A DNA stretch of 41,254 bases, taken from NCBI GenBank assembly GCA_017548505.1, contig JAFYZX010000034.1, positions 1 to 41,254 on the forward strand, given 5' to 3'. The translations under genes and the position numbers were made by a program. Each line of letters begins with the position of its first letter. Positions within the stretch are counted from its first letter, which is position 1. Source of the stretch: Bacteroidales bacterium (GTDB taxonomy: Bacteria > Bacteroidota > Bacteroidia > Bacteroidales > UBA932). The notes under the pieces are model-generated. The model saw only the letters and a list, made by a program, of their open reading frames with translations. It was not told the DNA's origin and did no database searches. Positions 20,971 through 33,752 of the stretch are shown here, in pieces.

Positions 20971-21098
20971 TAAGGGCAGGCAACCTCTTCTTGCTAGACT
21001 GTGGCCGCCCATGGCCACATGAACGGGAGGGGCCCACAAGCGTAGCGAAGTGGGAGGGATGAGCGAAGCGAAGTCTATAGAAGAGGTTGATGCCCTTA
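20971..21098 (+). repeat. Structured repeat, copy 1
   Basis: A 75-base core (20999-21073) that recurs almost unchanged at 22112-22178 is enclosed by long inverted arms. Outer arm: TAAGGGCA (20971-20978) pairs with 21091-21098, and CAACCTCTTCT (20981-20991) with 21079-21089, 19 pairs in all, then TAGA (20995-20998) with TCTA (21074-21077) directly against the core. Inside the core: GTGGCC/GGCCAC around loop GCCCAT; a second hairpin CCCAC/GTGGG with loop AAGCGTAGCGAA; and a 3' GAGCGAAGCGAAG stretch containing GCGAAGC, known as an unusually stable mini-hairpin sequence. It lies between two divergent promoters, so it does not terminate either flanking gene. Could be a small RNA or a short mobile palindromic element. 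Confidence 0.8.
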
Positions 21099-21113
21099 GG
21101 TTCATTTTTGTGG

Positions 21114-21121
21114 TATATTTG
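21114..21121 (+). promoter_or_regulatory. Candidate -7 element
   Basis: TATATTTG matches TAnnTTTG, 14 bases before the ATG at 21136. No TTTG is found at the normal -33 spacing; that position is occupied by the right edge of repeat copy 1. Confidence 0.5.
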
Positions 21122-21135
21122 CACTTGTTATCGCG

Positions 21136-21486
21136 ATGAAAAGAATAGGGAAGACACGGAGATATGCCTGGATTCTGCTGACAGTGATGCTGTTGGCAGG
21201 ATTATTCTTTGATGGGGGCGGAGAAACGGCCCCTCCTTCTGAAGACGGTTTATCTCCTTGTGTCCTTGGGCAGGGGCAGAGACCTGTCAGCGATGCACAC
21301 CAGACATATCTGGTTACCGTTCCTTCCGTTGTGGAGGCATCCCTTTCTTCCCGAATCAGTACCGCTGAGCTGAATTGCGCCTTTGAAGGTGGGATTCGCA
21401 TCCTCTGCAAGGTTTTCAGCATTAAGCTTCCGGTTCCTTCAGATTGCGTAAGGAGACTTACTTTCATAAAGGTTCTGAGGATCTGA
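21136..21486 (+). CDS. Small secreted or membrane-anchored protein, unknown
   Basis: I do not recognise this 116-residue protein. Residues 1-11 are basic (MKRIGKTRR) and residues 11-25 are a hydrophobic stretch (YAWILLTVMLLAGLFF), giving a signal peptide or single anchor. The remainder has four cysteines (SPCVLGQG, LNCAFEGG, ILCKV, SDCVRR) and no known motif. A -7 element lies just upstream and supports transcription in this direction. A competing minus-strand frame of 152 codons (21102-21560) covers the same bases but has no promoter or plausible protein character, so I prefer this one. The gene sits between the two structured repeats. Confidence 0.5.
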   Translation: MKRIGKTRRYAWILLTVMLLAGLFFDGGGETAPPSEDGLSPCVLGQGQRPVSDAHQTYLVTVPSVVEASLSSRISTAELNCAFEGGIRILCKVFSIKLPVPSDCVRRLTFIKVLRI

Positions 21487-21665
21487 TTTCTTTTCCATAC
21501 AGAGAGGTTATGGTGTTTATTATCGGCGATGGTGCGCTGTAACTGTCTCATTTTCAACATCTCCCTAAATAAGACCTTTCTTAAACGAACTCTTGTTTTG
21601 GGGTGCGCTGAGTATCAGGTATTTACAAGATACCATCGCCGTTCACTACCTCACAATAAAACATT
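21487..21665. other. Non-coding stretch between the two small genes
   Basis: No convincing gene. It holds an inverted repeat CGGCGATGGT (21524-21533) / ACCATCGCCG (21632-21641), a direct repeat GGTGCGCTG (21531-21539 and 21602-21610), and a small hairpin GGTAT/ATACC near 21618-21634. A possible promoter for the next gene is TTTTG near 21597-21601 followed about 18 bases later by TATTTACA, a weak -7. Confidence 0.4.
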
Positions 21666-22082
21666 ATGGAAAAGAAAATTTCAAAGGTCCGCACAACTGT
21701 GGACATTATCGTAGTTTTAGTATTACTTCTTGGAGGAGCGGCTTGCTTTGCTGCCCCCTCTACAGGGATGATGATTCTGGGCGGAACGCTGATTCTTGCC
21801 GGAATCATTGTGTTTTTCATTATGAAGAGCGGATATAAGCTTGAAGGAGAGGATGGCGTGTTCAAGAAAGAGGAACACTTCTTCCCGGATGCAAGATTTG
21901 ACGTGATTTACTCCGAGATTTCCGCCGGAAGGATGATTTCTTCCTTCAAGGACGAGGACAAGGCAATTGTCGTCAGACTGGATCTTTACCGCAATAAGGC
22001 AAACGGTAAAGTCTTCGGGCATCTGTTCAAATACGTTCCGTACGACTATGTTGAGAAGGTACCTCTGATTCAGTTACAATAG
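21666..22082 (+). CDS. Small membrane protein, unknown function
   Basis: A 138-residue protein that I do not recognise. Two hydrophobic segments are plain: residues about 13-31 (VDIIVVLVLLLGGAACFAA) and 34-53 (GMMILGGTLILAGIIVFFIM), separated by a short turn, so the protein is a hairpin in the inner membrane with a soluble C-terminal domain of about 80 residues. That domain is mixed charged/aromatic (FFPDARFDVIYSEI, AIVVRLDLYRNKANGKVFG, FKYVPYDYVEKVPLIQL), suggestive of a small beta domain. Repeat copy 2 begins four bases after its stop codon. No link to the neighbouring ABC exporter can be shown. Confidence 0.75.
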   Translation: MEKKISKVRTTVDIIVVLVLLLGGAACFAAPSTGMMILGGTLILAGIIVFFIMKSGYKLEGEDGVFKKEEHFFPDARFDVIYSEISAGRMISSFKDEDKAIVVRLDLYRNKANGKVFGHLFKYVPYDYVEKVPLIQLQ

Positions 22083-22086
22083 CGTT

Positions 22087-22203
22087 AAAGACAGGCAGTT
22101 TTCTTCAGAGCCTGTGGCCGCCCGTGGCCACATGAACGGGAGGGGCCCGGCTTGCCGGGAGGGATGAGCGAAGCGAAGGCAAAAAGAAAAGCTGCCTGTC
22201 TTT
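22087..22203 (+). repeat. Structured repeat, copy 2 (also a likely terminator)
   Basis: The 67-base core (22112-22178) matches copy 1 except for one loop base and the second hairpin, which here is CCCGGC/GCCGGG with loop TT. The outer arms are unrelated in sequence to those of copy 1 but again pair: AAAGACAGGCAG (22087-22098) with 22192-22203, and TTTTCTT (22099-22105) with AAGAAAA (22184-22190), 19 pairs with one bulged base, then GC with GC against the core. The first-hairpin loop GCCCGT can also pair with ACGGG at 22136-22140 as a pseudoknot. The 3' arm runs into TTTTT, so the structure can end transcription of the small membrane gene. Confidence 0.8.
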
Positions 22204-24007: not shown

Positions 24008-25880
24008 TCCAAATATGAAAGAAAGGGGATATGTGCCTGCGCAGGGAAAGCTTAAGCTCTCCACTGTGGCCAGGCTATTTGGACTCATCCTCAAGAATAA
24101 CAAATGGAAGATCGCCATTGTCTTGCTGTGCATCCTCGTATCCACTCTTGCAACTCTGGCTTCAACCCTGTTTACCAAGACCTTGCTGGACGACTATGTA
24201 GTGCCGATGATAGGGCAGGCAAGTCCGGACTATTCTCCTCTGGCGATAGCGCTGGTTAAACTGGCTGCGGTTCTCATAATAGGAATGGGGGCCTCATATC
24301 TGCACAGCATACTTACTGTTTATATCAGCCAGGGAACTCTCAAGACGCTGAGGCACAACCTCTTTGAGCACATGGAGAGGCTGCCGCTAAGTTTCTTTGA
24401 CTCCCGTAGTCACGGAGACATTATGAGTGTCTATACCAACGATGTGGATACTCTCCGTCAGGTAATTGGCCAGACGATTCCGCGTCTGTTCCAGAGCCTG
24501 GTTACGATAATCTCCACCTTTGTTAGCATGCTGGTTCTGAGCCTTCCGCTTAGTGCGATCTCGGTGGTTATGGCATTCCTGATGTACTATGTGACAAGGA
24601 AACTTGGCGGCCTGTCCAAGAAATACTTCAAGAAGAGGCAGGAGATGCTGGGCAAGGTAAACGGCTTCATTGAGGAGATGGTTTCCGGTCAGAGAGTTGT
24701 AAAGGTTTACTGCCACGAAGACAAGGCAATAGAGCAGTTCTCGGAGCTTAACGAGGAGCTCCGCAAAAGTGTTTACAATGCAAACAAGATAGGAAACATA
24801 GTGATGCCTGTAAACGGAAACCTGGGCAACCTGGGCTATGTGTTCATCGCCATCGCCGGAGCGGCCATCGCTCTGGCTTCCCTTGGCGGATGGTTCTTCT
24901 GCGGCCTTAACGGCTCCGTTCTCACTCTTGGAACTCTGGTGGCCTTCCTGACCCTTCACAAGAACTTTACAAGGCCTGTAACCCAGATAAGCAACGAGAT
25001 CAACAGCATCGTGATGGCAAGTGCCGGAAGCGACAGGGTTTACGATTTGATGGACCAGAAAGAGGAAGAAAACAGCGGAAAGGTTACACTGGAGAAAACC
25101 GGAGAGTGCCAGTGGTGCTGGAAAACCCAGGAAGGAGAGTCTATTCCGCTCAAGGGGGAGGTCAGCCTCAGCGATGTAGACTTCAGCTATGTGGAGGGAA
25201 AGCAGGTGCTCTACGATATCAATCTCACGGCTTATCCCGGCCAGAAGATTGCCTTTGTTGGAGGTACTGGCGCGGGCAAGACCACCATTACCAACCTCAT
25301 AAACCGATTCTATGAGATTCAAGACGGAAAGATTACATACGATGGTCTGGATATCAGGGATATAGAAAAAGACTCGCTGAGAAAAAGCCTTGGTATCGTG
25401 CTTCAGGAAACCCATCTTTTCACGGGAAGGATCATAGACAATATCCGCTATGGCAGGCTGGATGCCACTGACGCGGAATGCATCGAGGCCGCCAAACTGG
25501 TTTGCGCCCACAGCTTCATTCACCGTCTTCCGTTCGGCTACGATACTGTGATAACAGGAGACGGCGGCAACCTCTCACAGGGAGAAAGGCAGCTGCTTGC
25601 AATCGCCAGAGCCGCAGTGGCCGCTCCTCCTGTGCTGATTCTTGACGAGGCTACATCTTCCATCGATACACGCACGGAAAAGCTCATCCAGCAGGGAATG
25701 GACGAACTTATGAAGGGCCGCACAACATTTGTTATAGCCCACAGGCTTTCCACCATCCTCAATGCGGATTACATTATGGTAATGGATCACGGAAGGATAA
25801 TCGAACGTGGAAAGCATAACGAGCTCCTTGCCCTCAAAGGCAAATACTATCAACTATTTACAGGCAACCAGATTCTGTAA
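23994..25880 (+). CDS. ABC exporter half-transporter, catalytic subunit
   Basis: A 628-residue exporter with six membrane helices in residues about 35-340 and an ATPase domain. Walker A is GGTGAGKTT near residue 422 and Walker B is VLILDEAT near residue 549 with the catalytic Glu intact, but the signature is LSQGERQLL instead of LSGGQ. Taken with the partner (intact signature, Asp at Walker B), one composite ATP site is canonical and the other degenerate, as in heterodimeric multidrug exporters. A charged insertion EEENSGKVTLEKTGECQWCW precedes the ATPase domain. The 14-base overlap with the first subunit supports fixed stoichiometry. The SpvB-like gene starts 22 bases after its stop without a clear promoter. 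Confidence 0.93.
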   Translation: MRMGSPNMKERGYVPAQGKLKLSTVARLFGLILKNNKWKIAIVLLCILVSTLATLASTLFTKTLLDDYVVPMIGQASPDYSPLAIALVKLAAVLIIGMGASYLHSILTVYISQGTLKTLRHNLFEHMERLPLSFFDSRSHGDIMSVYTNDVDTLRQVIGQTIPRLFQSLVTIISTFVSMLVLSLPLSAISVVMAFLMYYVTRKLGGLSKKYFKKRQEMLGKVNGFIEEMVSGQRVVKVYCHEDKAIEQFSELNEELRKSVYNANKIGNIVMPVNGNLGNLGYVFIAIAGAAIALASLGGWFFCGLNGSVLTLGTLVAFLTLHKNFTRPVTQISNEINSIVMASAGSDRVYDLMDQKEEENSGKVTLEKTGECQWCWKTQEGESIPLKGEVSLSDVDFSYVEGKQVLYDINLTAYPGQKIAFVGGTGAGKTTITNLINRFYEIQDGKITYDGLDIRDIEKDSLRKSLGIVLQETHLFTGRIIDNIRYGRLDATDAECIEAAKLVCAHSFIHRLPFGYDTVITGDGGNLSQGERQLLAIARAAVAAPPVLILDEATSSIDTRTEKLIQQGMDELMKGRTTFVIAHRLSTILNADYIMVMDHGRIIERGKHNELLALKGKYYQLFTGNQIL

Positions 25881-25902
25881 GTACAGAAATAACATACATT
25901 TT

Positions 25903-28900
25903 ATGAAAAACGAAACGGTCTTAAAACTCTTATTCTTACTATTGGGAGTTTTTCCTGTAACAGTTGTAGAGTCTTACGCCCAACTCGCTTTGGTCAACGA
26001 GCCGGACAAGCCGTCTGTCCAGGCTGCGGAGATGACAAAGTACGGAAAACTGAATGCTCAACTCTATACAGGAAAAGTATCCGTTTCCATACCAATCTAT
26101 GTTTATCGCGACAGCCGCTTCTCCATCCCCATCTCTCTGGACTACAGCTATAACGGACTTGTAGCCAACCGCCAGGCCGGCATCGCGGGACTGGGCTGGA
26201 GCCTGAGCTGCGGAGGAGTTATTACACGTGAAGTCAGAGGAATACCAGATGAGCTCTTGGGATCTTTTAACAAACATACTTCTTCCGATGTCATTACCCT
26301 TAACCTCCTGGGCTTTGACTACATCCCTTCCGGAAGCCAGCTTCAGATGCCCGAATATGAAGTCATAACAAGACCATCCTCATCCAATGTCCTTAAGACC
26401 GCATACAGCATCAACGGCACGCTATATGAAACCTGTTCAGACATTTACCACTTCTCTTTCCCCGGTCACAGCGGCTCGTTCTACCGAAACCCTGACGGCA
26501 GTTTCACTGTTTTCCATACCGGCACGTTTGACGGAGACTACAGGATAAAGAAGACAAACATTACACTTAATGACGAGAACCATAATGTCGCTACAGAATT
26601 CGTGATTACCACTTCTGACGGATACAGGTATTATTTCGGGTCTCTGCAAAGCGAAGGCGATTCCGGTCTTTTCAGGTACATTGAACGCAGCGTCTATCAG
26701 GGATATGACAAGGGCAATCCCGACGCCACTCCCAAACCCTACAGGGCCATATCTTTTCTGCTGAGAAGGATAGAAAGCCAGGACGGCTCTGCCGTTACCT
26801 TCAACTACAATGAAAACGACAGCCACTCGGACATAGTCAACTATTCTTCCACGCTCTGGCTCTGTAGCCAGAGTTCCGATGATGCATTCAGTATGCTCCA
26901 GTACGGAGAAGACCTCAACACGGCAAGCTATCTCTCCTCCATTGAGCTTCCCGGAGGAACCTCCCTGGACTTTAGCTATCTGGCCAAACCTACCGGCAAG
27001 CAGGGATCCTACCTTCAGGGCACAGACCGACTGAACATCCGCTTAGACCAGTCATATCTACTTCTGGACAGCATCTCGACTCCGGCTGGAGGAGTGAGAC
27101 TCTCCTACATTTATAACTCCCAGGGCAACCCATACCCCTTCCTTTCCGAGATACATCAGGAGGGCATAGGAAGCTACAGGTTTGACTATGAAGGCCTCTA
27201 CGACCGGTTCTTCCCGGCCTTCGGCACCACGGCGACGGACCACTGGGGCTACATCTGCAAAAGCGACTCGTCTCACATGAACAGGAATTCCGTAGATCTG
27301 GACTATCTCAGCAACACATCCTCCAGCACCTTTGACGAGACTGTGAGCACCAGCCGCAACGCCAACACAACAGCATCGTCCATAGGCCTCATGACCAGAA
27401 TCACCTATCCCACCGGAGGTAGCAGCATACTCCAGTACGAGGACAATACCGTATGGAGAAACCTGAGGAAATTATCCTCCAACGGCTATTCGCCAGCAAT
27501 GTACTCTTCCGGAGGCGGATTTCTGGACAAGGGACCGGGAAGCCGAATATCCAAGGTCATCAATGTGGATGAAAACGGTGTTCCCACAGACACCACAAGT
27601 TATGTTTACAGACGAGAGAACTATGCCACCAGCGGAAGCCTGCTTGTCTATCCACGCTACCGGCTGGATTACACGGGAGTTATGGGAAATACGGACGTGG
27701 TTCATGTAAACATAGCGTCCTCTTCCGGCATAGCAAATTACGAGGCCACGCCGGTGGAATACAGCAGGGTGGAGGAAATCCATCCGGACGGTTCAAAGAC
27801 CGTGCACCACTTTTCCGGCTGGGATGACTGTCCTGACGAATTCTCTTCGGAGGCATACGAACTCTTCAGAGCACACTCCGGAGAACACGGCAACAGCGTT
27901 TCGCCGATGTTCATCTCCGGCAAAACGACACTTACAAGCAGCGGAGCCGATGCAGTCCACAACATCCTCCGGCCAGCCACCAGCCACCAGAGCCGAAGGG
28001 GAAAAGAAAAGATGACCGAGACCTATTCCGCGGAAGGACAGCTTCTCAGGAAAACGGAGACAGATTATCTTGTCATGGAAGAGCAGAACGCATTCTATGA
28101 AAACATCTATATCGGAGAGGCCGTATGTCCCCTGATGCGCTACACCTATGACACGAAAACTCAGAAGGTAAAGGGCACGGACTTTTTCCAGAACAATTCT
28201 TCCGTCTCGTCACAGGTACAGTACACATACAACAGCCTGGGACAAAAGTCTTCAGAGGTTAAGACTCTTTCCAACGGGGATATAATCACAACCAACTACA
28301 CATATATTCCGGACATAGCGGACAATCATCGTACCGCTGTACAGAAGAAAATGTACAGCAAGGGACTCATAGGAAATCCCGTGAAGGTAACTGTTAAATG
28401 CCGACTGCACGGAACAACAATTGACAGGGTTATGTCTTCCGACTCCTTGACCTTCGACTCTCTCGCCAGAACAGGAGCGACCACACTGTTCCTCCCAAAG
28501 AAATGGCAGAAAAGGGATGTGGAGACAGGCACGTGGAAAGACTACGCCTCCTACGTCCACGACAGCAAGGGAAACATCATCCAGAAGACAGACGCCAACG
28601 GAATTTCCACCACTTTCATCTGGTATTCCGACAACCTGGGAGTGGCTCTACGGATAGACAACGCCACGGCCGCACAGGTGACCGCGGCCCTGGGAAGCTC
28701 GCCGTTTGGAGGCATGGCGGAGGCAAACACGGAATCTATTGCAACCACACTACGCAGCGCGCTTCCACACAGCGAAGTCTCCTGGTACAAGTGGTGGTCT
28801 TACGGACTGCCGTCAAAGGTATGCGACCCCACTGGAAGGATTACGCACTACACCTATGACACGGCACAGAGGCTGAACATCATCCGCGATGACAGCCTTG

Positions 28901-28941
28901 ACCCTGTGGAGAGGTATGACAACCAGACACTGACAAGATAG
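25903..28941 (+). CDS. SpvB/Rhs-type secreted protein (upstream partner)
   Basis: A 1012-residue exported protein. The start is ATG 25903, which gives a normal Sec signal peptide (LKLLFLLLGVFPVTVV, cleavage near SYA); the frame runs open further upstream into the ABC gene but that part is not signal-like. Near the N-terminus, PISLDYSYNGL and AGIAGLGWSLSCGGVITREV are the SpvB/TcB-like opening seen in many Bacteroidota Rhs systems. Scattered YD-type repeats follow (SEGDSGLFRYIERS region, YTYNSLGQKSSEVKTL, RITHYTYDTAQRLNIIRD). It has no Rhs core and stops shortly after a YD repeat. Together with the next gene it likely forms the beta-propeller and cocoon shell that encloses a toxin; this is inference from Tc/Rhs families. 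Confidence 0.8.
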   Translation: MKNETVLKLLFLLLGVFPVTVVESYAQLALVNEPDKPSVQAAEMTKYGKLNAQLYTGKVSVSIPIYVYRDSRFSIPISLDYSYNGLVANRQAGIAGLGWSLSCGGVITREVRGIPDELLGSFNKHTSSDVITLNLLGFDYIPSGSQLQMPEYEVITRPSSSNVLKTAYSINGTLYETCSDIYHFSFPGHSGSFYRNPDGSFTVFHTGTFDGDYRIKKTNITLNDENHNVATEFVITTSDGYRYYFGSLQSEGDSGLFRYIERSVYQGYDKGNPDATPKPYRAISFLLRRIESQDGSAVTFNYNENDSHSDIVNYSSTLWLCSQSSDDAFSMLQYGEDLNTASYLSSIELPGGTSLDFSYLAKPTGKQGSYLQGTDRLNIRLDQSYLLLDSISTPAGGVRLSYIYNSQGNPYPFLSEIHQEGIGSYRFDYEGLYDRFFPAFGTTATDHWGYICKSDSSHMNRNSVDLDYLSNTSSSTFDETVSTSRNANTTASSIGLMTRITYPTGGSSILQYEDNTVWRNLRKLSSNGYSPAMYSSGGGFLDKGPGSRISKVINVDENGVPTDTTSYVYRRENYATSGSLLVYPRYRLDYTGVMGNTDVVHVNIASSSGIANYEATPVEYSRVEEIHPDGSKTVHHFSGWDDCPDEFSSEAYELFRAHSGEHGNSVSPMFISGKTTLTSSGADAVHNILRPATSHQSRRGKEKMTETYSAEGQLLRKTETDYLVMEEQNAFYENIYIGEAVCPLMRYTYDTKTQKVKGTDFFQNNSSVSSQVQYTYNSLGQKSSEVKTLSNGDIITTNYTYIPDIADNHRTAVQKKMYSKGLIGNPVKVTVKCRLHGTTIDRVMSSDSLTFDSLARTGATTLFLPKKWQKRDVETGTWKDYASYVHDSKGNIIQKTDANGISTTFIWYSDNLGVALRIDNATAAQVTAALGSSPFGGMAEANTESIATTLRSALPHSEVSWYKWWSYGLPSKVCDPTGRITHYTYDTAQRLNIIRDDSLDPVERYDNQTLTR

Positions 28942-28952
28942 GAGGACAGACT

Positions 28953-31900
28953 ATGAAAAAGATTTTCAGCAAAACGGCTTCAATCATCCTGCTGGCAGCG
29001 GCAGGCCTCCTTCTCCCCAACCCTCTCCTGGCACAGACGGAACAGGTGGAGATAGACCTGGGGATTGACTACATCCAGCCAGACCAGGAAATAGGCATTA
29101 ATCCGGGTGGCGGAACGGCGGTAATACACATAACCAGCTACGGAGGATTCAACGAGGCCTCTCTCATGGCAAACATAGAGAACCAGATTTCGGACCTGGG
29201 CATAGACTGGATTACGGACGTGTTCCTGACAAACAAGGACGGAATCTACGAGGCGGACCTCAACCTCGTGTTCGGGCCAAACTCCGGATACAGCGAGAGG
29301 GAAGTGACACTGGTGGCGGCAAACACAACGGCGCTCATAACTCAGGGCATAAACATGCCTAACGTCTATGACCTCCTGCCAAACACTTCGCCAATCTATC
29401 TGCTGCACGGGGGAAAGAACGCGCTTACCCTGAGCAGCTCGGACGCCTTCGCCTCCTACCGCCTGCTCAAGGACACGGCGAACAACGTGACACTCACCGT
29501 CGCGGACGTGAACGGAAAGGGCGAGGGAGACAGGTCGCTGAAGTTCATAATCAATTCGCCTGGCACATACCGCTGCATCGCTTACTACCCGACGGAAGTG
29601 CAGATGAACGGGACAAAAAACGTGGACTGGCATCCGTTCTATGACATCACAAGAAACTGCAGCCTGAATCCAAATCCATTCTCCTTTCCAAAGAACGGGG
29701 GAAGCGTCTCCTTCACTTATAATGTAGCCACCACGCAGGACAGCATACTGCAGAGGATTGTAAACTTCTATAACAGCGGCAACTGCACCGTCTGGGACAC
29801 CACGATGGTCATTTCATACACAAGAAGTCCGCAGACAGCCAACACGGTCACAATGATTGTTGAAGCCGGGCCGAACCTGAAGAAATCGCAGGTCTATCCG
29901 CCGCAGCCGAACACAATAACAAACAACACATATTTCAAGATATCCCCATCGGGAAATGAAATCATCTTCACACAGCCTGCAGACGGAGAAATAAAAGCAT
30001 ACAGAGTCTCTTTCCCGGGAAACCTTGGATCCGTACCTCCTTACCTCATCCTGGATAGCACCCAGCACAGGGTAAGATACGCGCTCTTTAAGGACGGAGT
30101 CCAGTACGGCCCTGCAAGGACAGGACACGGAGACAGCCTCCATCTGGCAATTCCTGCGGATTCGGGAAAGTTCACCGTGATGGCCTTCTACGGGGGACAG
30201 GAGAAAAAGATGAAGGGGACGCTCACTGTCACGGGAAACATGAAAGCCGTGTGGGGAGAAAACTGGATCCTAAAGCAGACATTCACAGCAGAAGACGGAG
30301 CATCCTCCAATCTCGACATAACATATTATGACGGGCTGGGATATCCTACTCAAGTAATCAGCGTGGGGGCTTCACCTTCCGGCAAAAACATCGTAACTCC
30401 TCTCTGGTATGACCCTATGCGCAGGGAGGATGCAAAGGCTTATCTGCCATACGCCTCCCAAGCCAGCAGCACACCTCAGCCCGAGACAGAGCCGTTTGCA
30501 GCCCAGGAAGCTTTTTACACAAGCCTTTACGGACAGAGTGACGCTCAATTTGCCTATACGGAAAAAGTCTATGAAAACTCACCGCTGAACCGGGTGCAGA
30601 GACAGTTCACTCCGGGACAGGCCTTAAGGGCTACAGGGACAGACTCCGGGGGTAACGACCACTACACGTCTTTCACCTACGAAGCAAATGCGACTAACGA
30701 GGTACTGGACATGTACTGCAATGACGACGGAGCCTTGACAGTAAGGGGTTACATCGCCGCAGCAAAACTTTTCAGGACAACCGTCACCTCTCCGGACGGA
30801 AGGGCAACGACGGAGTTCAAGGATTCCGAGGGGACGCTCGTCCTCCAGAGAAGCGGAACGGGTAACTCCATCCAGGAGACTTACTACGCATACGACTCCA
30901 GAAGAAGGCTAAGGTGGGTAATTCAGCCGGAAGGCTCCGTGAGGGTAAAAAGCCTTGCGGCAAATTCGTCTAGTGCAAATCCTTATACGTTCAGCCAGAC
31001 AGACTCCACCGCCCAGAAGTTCTGCTTTATCTATAACTATAATGGAAAAAGCCAGATGACGGAGAAACGGATTCCGGGAAAGGGTTTCGAGTATATGGTA
31101 TATGACCCGGCGGGAAGGCTGGTGGCAACGCAGGACAGCGTCCTCAGAAGCCAGGACAGCAAGTGGATTCTGACTCGTTACGACAGCCTCTCAAGGGTGA
31201 CGCACACCTACCGCAGCCCTTCCGTTGAAAGGAACACGATGGAGACAGCGTTCACAACGTCACCATACCCGGCAATATATAGCAATTCAAACAATGTACT
31301 GCTAACCTCGGCCACTTTCGGCGAGACGGGGAACACCTTCTCCACTGGAAACCTTTACAGCGCGGACATACCTTCTTATCTGGCATTCTCTCCGGTTAGC
31401 GGAGTGGCGGAAACAGCAGACATAGACAGCAGGACAGCATCCCTTCTGCTTTATGACAAGACGCTAAGCCTCAACACCATAAATTCCTCTGCAGCCCAGA
31501 GAAAATACCGGGAGAGGGCTTATTACTATGATGCCAAGGGAAGAGTCATCCAGACAGTGGAGAGGAATCCGGACGGAGAAACTCTCAGGACAAGCGTGAA
31601 GTATGACTTTACAGGAAATCCTCTCACCACGGTCCAGACCTGCTCAAGGCAGGGAAACCAGACGCTCAAGCAGACTTTCGAATACGATTCCAGGGGAAGG
31701 AAGCTCTCTTCTTCCGCACGGTTGAACACTTCCGCAAATCCTGCAACCAATCCAGTTGTAAAGACATTCTCTGCTGTAAACTACACTTACGACGAACTGG
31801 GAAGGCTCACAGGCTCGGAGCGGGGAAAAACCTCAGCAGACGGCTCCTTTGTGCTTTCGCCATCTTCAACCACACCGGTCCTCTCCACATCTCTGAACTA

Positions 31901-33752
31901 CAACATCCAGGGATGGATGACAACCCAGGCAGATGTGCTGAAAAAAAGCACTGCCCAGTCTGACATTGTAAACCTATATTCCCAGACTCTGAGATATCAC
32001 GATGCACAGAAAGCTTCCACAGCAAAATCATACGACGGCCTGATTACAGAATGGGAGACCACCCAGTACTCTAACGGGACGGACTTCACCCTTCCGGGAA
32101 GCACGGCAGACAGATACACATACTCCTATTCTTACGACAACTTTGGAAGGCTCACATCTTCCGAGAGGTTTGAAGGAACATCTAGCTCGGCCACAAACGC
32201 CTTCACGGAAAGGAACCTCTCCTTTGACGGGAACGGGAACATCCTTTCTCTCACAAGATACGGAAACGGAAACTCGGCGATAAGGGACAGCTTGACTTAT
32301 TCATATTCGGGGAACAGGATTGAAAGACTCTACGGCGCATACAACGGACAGACAATATCGCATATAGTTCAAAACAACCCGGTAACAGGAACGGCATACT
32401 ACATCTACGACGGCAACGGGAACATGACGCTAGATGCCCTGAGAAACATTACCCTGACATACGATATCAACAATCTTGTAAGCACCATCTCCAGAAACGA
32501 CACTCTGCTTTCAACATACTTCTATCTGGCAGACGGAACAAAGTACAAGGCTATAGACAAAGACAACAAGGGAAGGGCGTACATAGGGCCGTTCTCTTAT
32601 GCTCTGGAAAAGATTGGAAACACAGTGTTCTCATACCTGGAGGGCATAGACACAGACAGCGGAAGGATAATGATCGTCAGGAAGCAAAGCGGAAACCAGA
32701 CTACGGCGGACTACACCACAGCCTTTTTTGTCAAAGACCATCTCGGAAGCACAAGGGTAATGCTGAACGCTCAGGGAGACATCCTGGAGAGAAACGCATA
32801 CTATCCGTTCGGGCTCCAGATGAACCAGGGAAAGGCATATCCTATGCTAACGGAGAGGCTGCCGCAGCTCTACATAGGATACATCTCCCCAACCCCTGCA
32901 AGGCGAGACATCTACAACGGAAAGGAAATACAGGCCACAGCAGGCACAGACTATCTGGACTACGGCTTCAGGCAATATGATCCAACACTTGCAAGATGGT
33001 TCAACATCGATCCGAAGGCGGGGAAATACCTGTCTATGTCGCCGTATAATTATTGTATGGGAAGTCCGCTCTACTTTGTAGATCCAGAAGGCAGAACAGG
33101 AGATGTTAAATATTATGAAGATGGAACAGCAGTAGTTACAGCAAAATTATATTTCTATGGCAATCATGCATCTTCGGAATTGTCTAAAAAGATAGCAGAC
33201 AACATTGCCTCTTATTGGAATGGAGCAAATGCTATTATTACTTACAAGGGGAAAGAGTATTCTGTGAAATTTAAAATCTATTATGAAACCGTATCGGAGG
33301 AAGATGCAATTAATATCGCAAAAAACAATAAAAGCGCTAGAAACAATTTTATAAGAATTGGAGAACAAAAGGGAAAATCAAGTTTCGCATCAACCCCTAG
33401 GTTTACTGATGACGGAGGAAACTCATTTTGGTTTAACATTGAAGATGATTTAGAAACATCTACAACTCCAAGTCATGAATTTGGTCATGGTCTTGGACTA
33501 AAACATGATGAAAGGAACTTTGCTAATAGTACAAATAAACCTAATATTATGATTCCTCGCGAAACTAGATATGGCCCTAAGTGGTCCTTTATTAATCAAG
33601 ATGGAGAGAGAGTTGTAGATCCTAAGTATAGGCGTGTAACTTCTAAAAACGTGAAAGATGCATTTTATCATAATTGGGGTAATTTTTACAAGATTCCAAG
33701 AATATCGTTAAATAAGATATTTAATGAAAATGGTGGTGAAATAAAATATTAA
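28953..33752 (+). CDS. Rhs polymorphic toxin with C-terminal metzincin-type metalloprotease
   Basis: A 1599-residue exported protein: Sec signal peptide (residues 1-27), two BACON-like beta domains (FPKNGGSVSFTY in the second), a DUF6443-type segment (ITYYDGLGYPTQVIS), many YD repeats (YDSRRRLRW, YDAKGRVIQ, YDELGRLTG), and an Rhs core (DHLGSTRVMLN, YDPTLARWFNIDP) ending in YFVDPEGR near residue 1381. The last 218 residues are a different domain with HEFGHGLGLKHDE (from residue 1508; zinc motif HExxHxxGxxH) and NIMIP, a candidate Met-turn: a metzincin-type protease. Composition falls at the join: 37 of 60 G+C in the row at 29461 against 20 of 60 at 33181. The tip looks swapped in, as in polymorphic toxins. 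Confidence 0.88.
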   Translation: MKKIFSKTASIILLAAAGLLLPNPLLAQTEQVEIDLGIDYIQPDQEIGINPGGGTAVIHITSYGGFNEASLMANIENQISDLGIDWITDVFLTNKDGIYEADLNLVFGPNSGYSEREVTLVAANTTALITQGINMPNVYDLLPNTSPIYLLHGGKNALTLSSSDAFASYRLLKDTANNVTLTVADVNGKGEGDRSLKFIINSPGTYRCIAYYPTEVQMNGTKNVDWHPFYDITRNCSLNPNPFSFPKNGGSVSFTYNVATTQDSILQRIVNFYNSGNCTVWDTTMVISYTRSPQTANTVTMIVEAGPNLKKSQVYPPQPNTITNNTYFKISPSGNEIIFTQPADGEIKAYRVSFPGNLGSVPPYLILDSTQHRVRYALFKDGVQYGPARTGHGDSLHLAIPADSGKFTVMAFYGGQEKKMKGTLTVTGNMKAVWGENWILKQTFTAEDGASSNLDITYYDGLGYPTQVISVGASPSGKNIVTPLWYDPMRREDAKAYLPYASQASSTPQPETEPFAAQEAFYTSLYGQSDAQFAYTEKVYENSPLNRVQRQFTPGQALRATGTDSGGNDHYTSFTYEANATNEVLDMYCNDDGALTVRGYIAAAKLFRTTVTSPDGRATTEFKDSEGTLVLQRSGTGNSIQETYYAYDSRRRLRWVIQPEGSVRVKSLAANSSSANPYTFSQTDSTAQKFCFIYNYNGKSQMTEKRIPGKGFEYMVYDPAGRLVATQDSVLRSQDSKWILTRYDSLSRVTHTYRSPSVERNTMETAFTTSPYPAIYSNSNNVLLTSATFGETGNTFSTGNLYSADIPSYLAFSPVSGVAETADIDSRTASLLLYDKTLSLNTINSSAAQRKYRERAYYYDAKGRVIQTVERNPDGETLRTSVKYDFTGNPLTTVQTCSRQGNQTLKQTFEYDSRGRKLSSSARLNTSANPATNPVVKTFSAVNYTYDELGRLTGSERGKTSADGSFVLSPSSTTPVLSTSLNYNIQGWMTTQADVLKKSTAQSDIVNLYSQTLRYHDAQKASTAKSYDGLITEWETTQYSNGTDFTLPGSTADRYTYSYSYDNFGRLTSSERFEGTSSSATNAFTERNLSFDGNGNILSLTRYGNGNSAIRDSLTYSYSGNRIERLYGAYNGQTISHIVQNNPVTGTAYYIYDGNGNMTLDALRNITLTYDINNLVSTISRNDTLLSTYFYLADGTKYKAIDKDNKGRAYIGPFSYALEKIGNTVFSYLEGIDTDSGRIMIVRKQSGNQTTADYTTAFFVKDHLGSTRVMLNAQGDILERNAYYPFGLQMNQGKAYPMLTERLPQLYIGYISPTPARRDIYNGKEIQATAGTDYLDYGFRQYDPTLARWFNIDPKAGKYLSMSPYNYCMGSPLYFVDPEGRTGDVKYYEDGTAVVTAKLYFYGNHASSELSKKIADNIASYWNGANAIITYKGKEYSVKFKIYYETVSEEDAINIAKNNKSARNNFIRIGEQKGKSSFASTPRFTDDGGNSFWFNIEDDLETSTTPSHEFGHGLGLKHDERNFANSTNKPNIMIPRETRYGPKWSFINQDGERVVDPKYRRVTSKNVKDAFYHNWGNFYKIPRISLNKIFNENGGEIKY

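What the first reader, a model, noticed from the sequence alone, without database searches (positions are those of the whole stretch)
20971..22203. Two copies of a structured repeat with a fixed core and arms that differ but always pair
Copies at 20971-21098 and 22087-22203 share a core (75 and 67 bases) that is identical apart from one loop base and one hairpin. The outer arms have unrelated sequences, yet each copy's arms form about 19 base pairs, with a short helix (TAGA/TCTA or GC/GC) set directly against the core. The inner second hairpin is CCCAC/GTGGG in one copy and CCCGGC/GCCGGG in the other: different bases, same pairing. This compensatory pattern points to selection on RNA or single-stranded DNA structure rather than simple duplication. 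I do not recognise the family.
Basis: partly seen in the sequence, partly recalled or inferred. Interest (0 to 1): 0.85.

Follow-up and report, generated by a model that had tools for sequence, protein, structure and literature searches.

The report
Mobile hairpin element with pseudoknotted core
The two copies belong to a family of short mobile DNA elements in gut Bacteroidales that settle at gene ends and carry a conserved folded core between arms that change in sequence but keep pairing.

Summary
The window's genome has 10. A covariance model finds the core in 20 of 39 genus genomes and in three further families of the order. No Rfam family reaches its cut-off.

The core is a 7-bp hairpin whose loop pairs with sequence just downstream (an H-type pseudoknot), a second hairpin and an optional third. 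Covariation is strong: the one pseudoknot pair left free by the search pattern reads GC 57, AU 25, AC 1 of 83. Wobble pairs in hairpin 2 (37 G·T, 1 A·C) say the + strand folds.

The element is mobile: at one site two genomes have 140 bp between convergent stop codons, and six relatives have 0-6 bp, without core or arms. One genome holds a recent burst with inverted ends and likely 8-bp target duplications. It sits at gene 3' ends, mostly between convergent genes.

The mobilising enzyme and the core's job remain unknown.

The parts
20972..20999 (+). copy 1, 5' arm (outer helix, bulge, inner helix, TAGAC closing helix)
21000..21019 (+). copy 1, hairpin 1 (21000-21006 with 21013-21019; loop GCCCAT 21007-21012)
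   Evidence: covariation
21008..21027 (+). copy 1, pseudoknot: loop bases 21008-21012 with 21023-21027; A21011 opposite C21024 is a mismatch
   Evidence: the G014 orthologue has G
21033..21054 (+). copy 1, hairpin 2 (CCCAC 21033-21037 with GTGGG 21050-21054)
21055..21073 (+). copy 1, AGGGAT and optional hairpin 3 region (GAGCGAAGCGAAG)
   Evidence: alignment A1
21073..21097 (+). copy 1, 3' arm
22087..22112 (+). copy 2, 5' arm
22113..22132 (+). copy 2, hairpin 1 (22113-22119 with 22126-22132; loop GCCCGT)
22121..22140 (+). copy 2, pseudoknot: 22121-22125 with 22136-22140, fully paired
22146..22159 (+). copy 2, hairpin 2 (CCCGGC with GCCGGG)
22160..22178 (+). copy 2, AGGGAT and optional hairpin 3 region
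22178..22203 (+). copy 2, 3' arm, followed by two more T

Best explanation
The two copies are insertions of a non-autonomous, MITE-like mobile element known so far only from Bacteroidales. The unit is outer inverted repeats or arms, an inner helix, and a conserved core of about 65-80 nt that folds as a single + strand into an H-type pseudoknot, a second hairpin and an optional third. Shown: insertion of core plus arms at sites that are empty in relatives; a burst of near-identical units with inverted ends in one genome, with target duplications supported statistically; placement at gene 3' ends; covariation of the core. Inferred: a DDE-type transposase encoded elsewhere acts on the ends (the target duplications point that way), and the core is kept because it works as a folded single strand, as RNA or as extruded ssDNA. 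My best guess is that the core serves the element itself, by making the inserted hairpin tolerable at transcript ends or by aiding its mobilisation. Arms can drift because only their pairing, or their fit to the transposase of the day, matters; strand switching may help restore pairing.
For: Empty sites: at copy c7 (L007), G000 and G014 have 140 bp between two convergent stop codons, G012 has 6 and G003, G023, G029, G009 and G030 have 0. G012 lacks both window copies with their arms. Burst: in G071, 12 of 15 copies in 14 fetched stretches share the inner arm; the end motif occurs 93 times there with up to 3 mismatches; flanking 8-mers match at 7 or 8 positions in 10 of 27 units, against 5.3% for swapped flanks (best of nine registers tried). 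Patchy spread: 46 of 249 family genomes and 8 of 25 genera by exact pattern. Covariation; further pseudoknot types CCCTC/GAGGG, CCCAC/GTGGG and CCCGC/GCGGG in hits not chosen by the pattern. One-strand wobble. Context: 35 convergent, 32 tandem, 4 divergent of 71 classified, against 21% convergent and 26% divergent of background intergenic length.
Against: No transposase was tied to the element: no unit with a transposase-like ORF was seen among the G071 stretches read. Inverted ends with target duplications were examined in one genome only, where the same ends also bound core-less units (12 of 27), so the core may be a passenger. In the window's genus the ends are not sharply defined. Arms of the c7 insertion match no other sampled non-orthologous copy better than 65%, which plain copying does not explain. 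Copies persist at orthologous sites, as a host function would predict. Hairpin 1 has 3 A·C and no G·T, and the pseudoknot 1 A·C, so the strand signal rests on hairpin 2 and, more weakly, on the arms.
Confidence: 0.66

Rival explanations
1. A host-serving structured RNA or bidirectional 3'-end element (terminator or mRNA-end stabiliser) that is spread by transposition and kept where it helps to end transcripts.
For: Median 11 nt to the adjacent gene 3' end (18 and 2 nt); convergent enrichment; one-strand folding of the core; orthologous copies kept across 7% (c7) and 13% (c4) divergence; copy 2 is followed by T's.
Against: Both orientations occur next to single gene ends (++ 8 and -- 24; 13 and 21); by reading, 7 of the 10 own copies (c1, c3, c5-c8, c10) have no T run right after the 3' arm; 19 of 39 genus genomes, drafts, have no match at all.
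Confidence: 0.2
2. The arms stay paired mainly by mutation (template switching between inverted repeats), not by selection; only the core is selected.
For: G014 holds at the copy-2 site a core-less palindrome whose inner 3' arm is, but for a base, the reverse complement of the window's 5' arm. The mechanism is documented (PMC8794818, abstract; PMC8604942, listing only). In six usable orthologous comparisons 4 arm pairs changed on both sides with pairing kept, 5 on one side with pairing kept, and 10 were mispaired in one genome (a seventh, c10, misaligned: 1, 4 and 14).
Against: A bulge at a similar place in many arms is not 'corrected'; G·T outnumbers A·C in arms 173 to 91 (hits not independent), which switching alone does not obviously predict.
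Confidence: 0.35
3. A REP-like element moved by a Y1 (RAYT / IS200-IS605) transposase acting on folded ssDNA.
For: One-strand folding, 3'-end location, Y1_Tnp matches in 27 of 39 genus genomes. In G014 one element (C15:149213-149307) lies about 0.5 kb from a Y1_Tnp match below the family cut-off (C15:149821).
Against: 4 of 11 element-bearing genomes (G042, G677, G823, G853; 96-99% complete) have no Y1_Tnp match; none of 49 Y1 loci fetched, of 81 places found, carries the element; Y1 elements leave no target duplication (recalled), G071 units appear to.
Confidence: 0.05
4. The core inserted into the loop of existing terminator hairpins, so the arms are old host sequence.
For: Arms look like long terminator stems and differ at most sites.
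Against: Arms are absent with the core at the three sites compared in relatives.
Confidence: 0.03

Closest known systems
[quoted passage not shown]
   Same: Short, no ORF, inverted ends, likely target duplications and a burst of copies in G071, empty sites in relatives
   Different: The conserved part is the centre, not the ends; that centre is a pseudoknotted structure shared by units with unlike ends across families of an order
REP elements (GTAG and CGTC families; PMC3733652, passages read)
   Same: Intergenic palindromes, patchy copy number; gene 3' ends (recalled)
   Different: REPs are 20-40 bp in that paper; here 120 nt or more with a pseudoknot and no Y1 link found. The GTAG/CGTC tags were not tested
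ERIC/RUP/RPE-type intergenic palindromes (recalled)
   Same: About 100-150 nt imperfect palindromes dispersed between genes
   Different: As recalled, those keep sequence along their length; here arms diverge while the core is kept
Integron attC sites (recalled)
   Same: Folded single strand with conserved shape, variable sequence and extrahelical bases
   Different: Here the conserved sequence is central and the variable part outside
Candidate palindromic structured RNAs of human microbiomes (PMC8040213, passages read)
   Same: Some Bacteroidetes candidates of about 100 nt, some palindromic
   Different: Their sequences could not be read here, so identity with one of them is neither shown nor excluded

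Membership tests
MITE | short non-coding unit bounded by terminal inverted repeats | tested here: met
   G071 units of about 174 bp; in the window's genus only arms, ends not sharply defined
MITE | target-site duplication | tested here: met
   G071 only: 10 of 27 units against 5.3% in control, best of nine registers; not shown for the window copies
MITE | ends shared with an autonomous element coding a transposase | tested here: inconclusive
   none seen in the part of the 93 end hits of G071 that was read; draft assembly
MITE | insertion polymorphism with empty sites | tested here: met
REP/RAYT | linked to a Y1 tyrosine transposase gene | tested here: not met
   4 of 11 element-bearing genomes without Y1_Tnp; 0 of 49 fetched Y1 loci carry the element; one sub-cut-off Y1 hit lies about 0.5 kb from an element in G014
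Rfam families (4227) | match at or above gathering score | tested here: not met
   only a tRNA in the window; a scan of 7 loci at E up to 5 gave on an element only mir-33, 28.1 bits against a cut-off of 50, E 0.0097
intrinsic terminator | stem followed by a T run in the reading direction | tested here: inconclusive
   copy 2 yes; 7 of 10 own copies no, by reading; no termination assay
self-cleaving ribozyme | cleavage activity | not testable with these tools
   no Rfam ribozyme match on the element

The most novel reading that the evidence does not exclude
The pseudoknotted core is the working, heritable part of a mobile element, and the arms are remade or rapidly rewritten at or after each move, for instance by fold-back copying or template switching, so that each copy ends up with unrelated yet pairing arms: a mobile element whose ends are not its identity.
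Probability: 0.15. Interest if true: 0.88.

Novelty: new variant of a known kind. Interest (0 to 1): 0.64.

Why it matters
It gives a covarying, pseudoknotted structure that travels in miniature transposons through Bacteroidales and settles at gene ends. It makes two open questions testable: what a conserved non-coding core does for an element that codes for nothing, and how far the pairing of inverted repeats is kept by selection or by strand switching.

Tried and rejected
Rfam at gathering score and at E up to 5 on 7 loci: the one match on an element, mir-33 at E 0.0097 and far below its cut-off, was taken as a chance long-hairpin match. Insertion into existing terminators: rejected at three sites. 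RAYT/IS200 mobilisation: not supported, with the one near neighbour in G014 noted. An autonomous relative sought by its ends in G071: only core-bearing and core-less units without a transposase among those read. Phage carriage: the two viral-contig hits look like chance in GC-rich coding DNA, by reading. A d(GCGNAGC) mini-hairpin idea for the 3' core was dropped because hairpin 3 varies or is missing. Papers (open-licence PubMed Central only, no preprints): searches found none; the listed papers (15 of 30; 10 of 630; 10 of 65) do not name this element in title or abstract start.

Limits and dropped rows. The core pattern fixes four of the five pseudoknot pairs and one pair of hairpin 1, so only the free positions, and hits found without it, count as covariation. 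In 'further pair types' (22) did not exceed shuffles (23.7), the pair 17-33 of hairpin 1 is unpaired in 42 of 83, and class II cores are out of register in hairpin 2. Searches count 156 pattern hits with a few non-Bacteroidales ones (for example L164, L169, L254) that are surely chance; one search used 142 of them. Alignment A1 used 83 of the 97 references; 14 were dropped by hand, L254 among them. Context: one search classified 77 of 156 (48 inside an ORF call, 31 unclear); one search classified 71 of 182 (33 inside an ORF call, 37 unclear, 41 on loci under 2.5 kb skipped), with a home-made ORF caller; orthologues and bursts are not independent. The right-hand neighbour of copy 1 is uncertain (a 152-aa - ORF or a 116-aa + ORF).

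Full report
What is there. The window holds two + strand copies of one structured element, at 20972-21097 and 22087-22203. Each has arms of about 20 bp, a closing helix, hairpin 1 (7 bp), a UGA linker, hairpin 2, AGGGAY and an optional hairpin 3. Copy 2 pairs fully; copy 1 has one A·C mismatch, and the G014 orthologue of copy 1 keeps the pair.

How many. The genome (1.99 Mb draft, 86% complete) holds 10 copies, each with pairing arms. A core pattern matched 119 stretches of GTDB genomes before the scan stopped at its limit; of the 80 listed, 78 bear Bacteroidales-type names and two (Pseudomonas, Hyphomicrobiales) look like chance; Candidatus Cryptobacteroides is among the named genera. By exact pattern 46 of 249 genomes and 8 of 25 genera of the family have it; in a sample of 395 genomes of the phylum only the window's own does. 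The covariance model R1 is more sensitive: 20 of 39 genus genomes at E up to 0.001, two of them with weak matches only, and 6 of 393 of the order under stricter filters, in families f1, f83, f128 and f161 plus one weak hit in f126. So absence by pattern is not absence, and outside the order only the pattern was tried. In the window R1 finds the two copies and one chance-level hit.

The fold. On 83 aligned cores, hairpin 1 has four pairs with changes on both sides, hairpin 2 five and the pseudoknot one (GC 57, AU 25, A·C 1); there are 152 double-change cells, against 34 on average in shuffles and 10-58 when partners are slid. Not all measures agree: further pair types (22) do not exceed shuffles (23.7), and pair 17-33 of hairpin 1 is unpaired in 42 of 83. 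The search pattern fixes the other four pseudoknot pairs, so the free R/Y pair is the fair test: over 182 hits it reads GC 119, AT 58, AC 4, GT 1. Hits found without the pattern add CCCTC/GAGGG, CCCAC/GTGGG and CCCGC/GCGGG. In 69 class I cores hairpin 2 has 37 G·T, 36 of them at one position, and 1 A·C, which pair only if the + strand folds; hairpin 1 has 3 A·C and no G·T. Arms lean the same way as hairpin 2, 173 G·T to 91 A·C in 142 of 156 hits that are not independent. This fits + strand RNA or extruded ssDNA and does not tell them apart.

It moves. At c7, G000 and G014 have 140 bp between two convergent stop codons; G012 has 6 bp and G003, G023, G029, G009 and G030 have 0, with neither core nor arms. 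G022 and G027 hold other DNA there, without a model match on those contigs. Both window copies are missing, arms included, from G012. G014 has at the copy-2 site a core-less palindrome that looks like a strand-switch or deletion product. In G071, 12 of 15 copies in 14 fetched stretches share the inner arm, in units about 174 bp long with ends like TAYGATTATCCGCAAAATTAC. That end occurs 93 times with up to 3 mismatches. Of 27 complete units, 15 carry a core and 12 do not; the script gave the same totals but mislabelled two, L371 (core-less) and L343 (diverged core). Flanking 8-mers match at 7 or 8 positions in 10 of 27, against 5.3% for swapped flanks, in the best of nine registers. So there the core rides in a MITE family whose ends also bound core-less units.

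Where it sits. Of 71 copies that could be classified, 35 lie between convergent, 32 between tandem and 4 between divergent genes, against 21% convergent and 26% divergent of intergenic length in the same loci; the median distance to the neighbouring 3' end is 11 nt. A looser count gave 37, 34 and 6 of 77. Next to single 3' ends both orientations occur, 8 and 24, 13 and 21.

Arms. Among 45 copies of the genus, arms are barely more alike than shuffled ones (median 0.50 against 0.42) while cores are at 0.83; 90 of 990 pairs exceed the shuffled 99% level, orthologues included, so some arms are related. Orthologous arms are much closer (c7: 31 of 31 pairs the same). In six usable orthologous comparisons 4 pairs changed on both sides with pairing kept, 5 on one side, and 10 were mispaired in one genome; c10 is misaligned because one copy is truncated. 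So I claim no selection on arms from orthologues. Strand switching can keep inverted repeats paired (PMC8794818, abstract). The arms of c7, inserted within the genus's history, have no close match among sampled copies (best 0.65); the donor may be lost or unsampled.

What it works like, and what it is. It works like a non-autonomous transposon with a structured centre. Of the MITE features it meets inverted ends and target duplication (in G071 only) and empty sites; the autonomous partner is not found. It does not look like a RAYT-linked REP: Y1_Tnp is absent from 4 of 11 element-bearing genomes and none of 49 fetched Y1 loci, of 81 places found, carries the element, although in G014 one element lies about 0.5 kb from a Y1 match below the cut-off. 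No Rfam family fits. I file it as a new variant of a known kind; what the core does is the open point.

Noticed in passing
window 21523-21641: A second repeat of about 119 bp with inverted ends (GGCGATGGTG / CACCATCGCC, by reading) lies between the two copies. It matches on both strands in several genus genomes; in G014 it sits at the copy-2 site and beside RNase P RNA, where G000 has a copy of the element instead.
   Followed up: partly
L004 1101-1600; L008 1343-1595: One copy starts about 35 nt downstream of the RNase P RNA gene and another about 60 nt downstream of a tRNA gene.
   Followed up: no
L385-L392 (G823): A genome of another family of the order has 10 model matches; about half of those printed share one arm (GGCAGGTTGCCCCGGGCAAAC), which suggests a second burst.
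   Followed up: partly
L299-L311 (G248): Eleven of 13 copies printed are near-identical and most are followed by a conserved CTGCGAGCAGC block, some preceded by a related repeat, as if inserted beside or together with another repeat family.
   Followed up: no
window 25807-33752: Two long adjacent ORFs read like YD/RHS-type repeat proteins (my reading of the translations, not searched).
   Followed up: no
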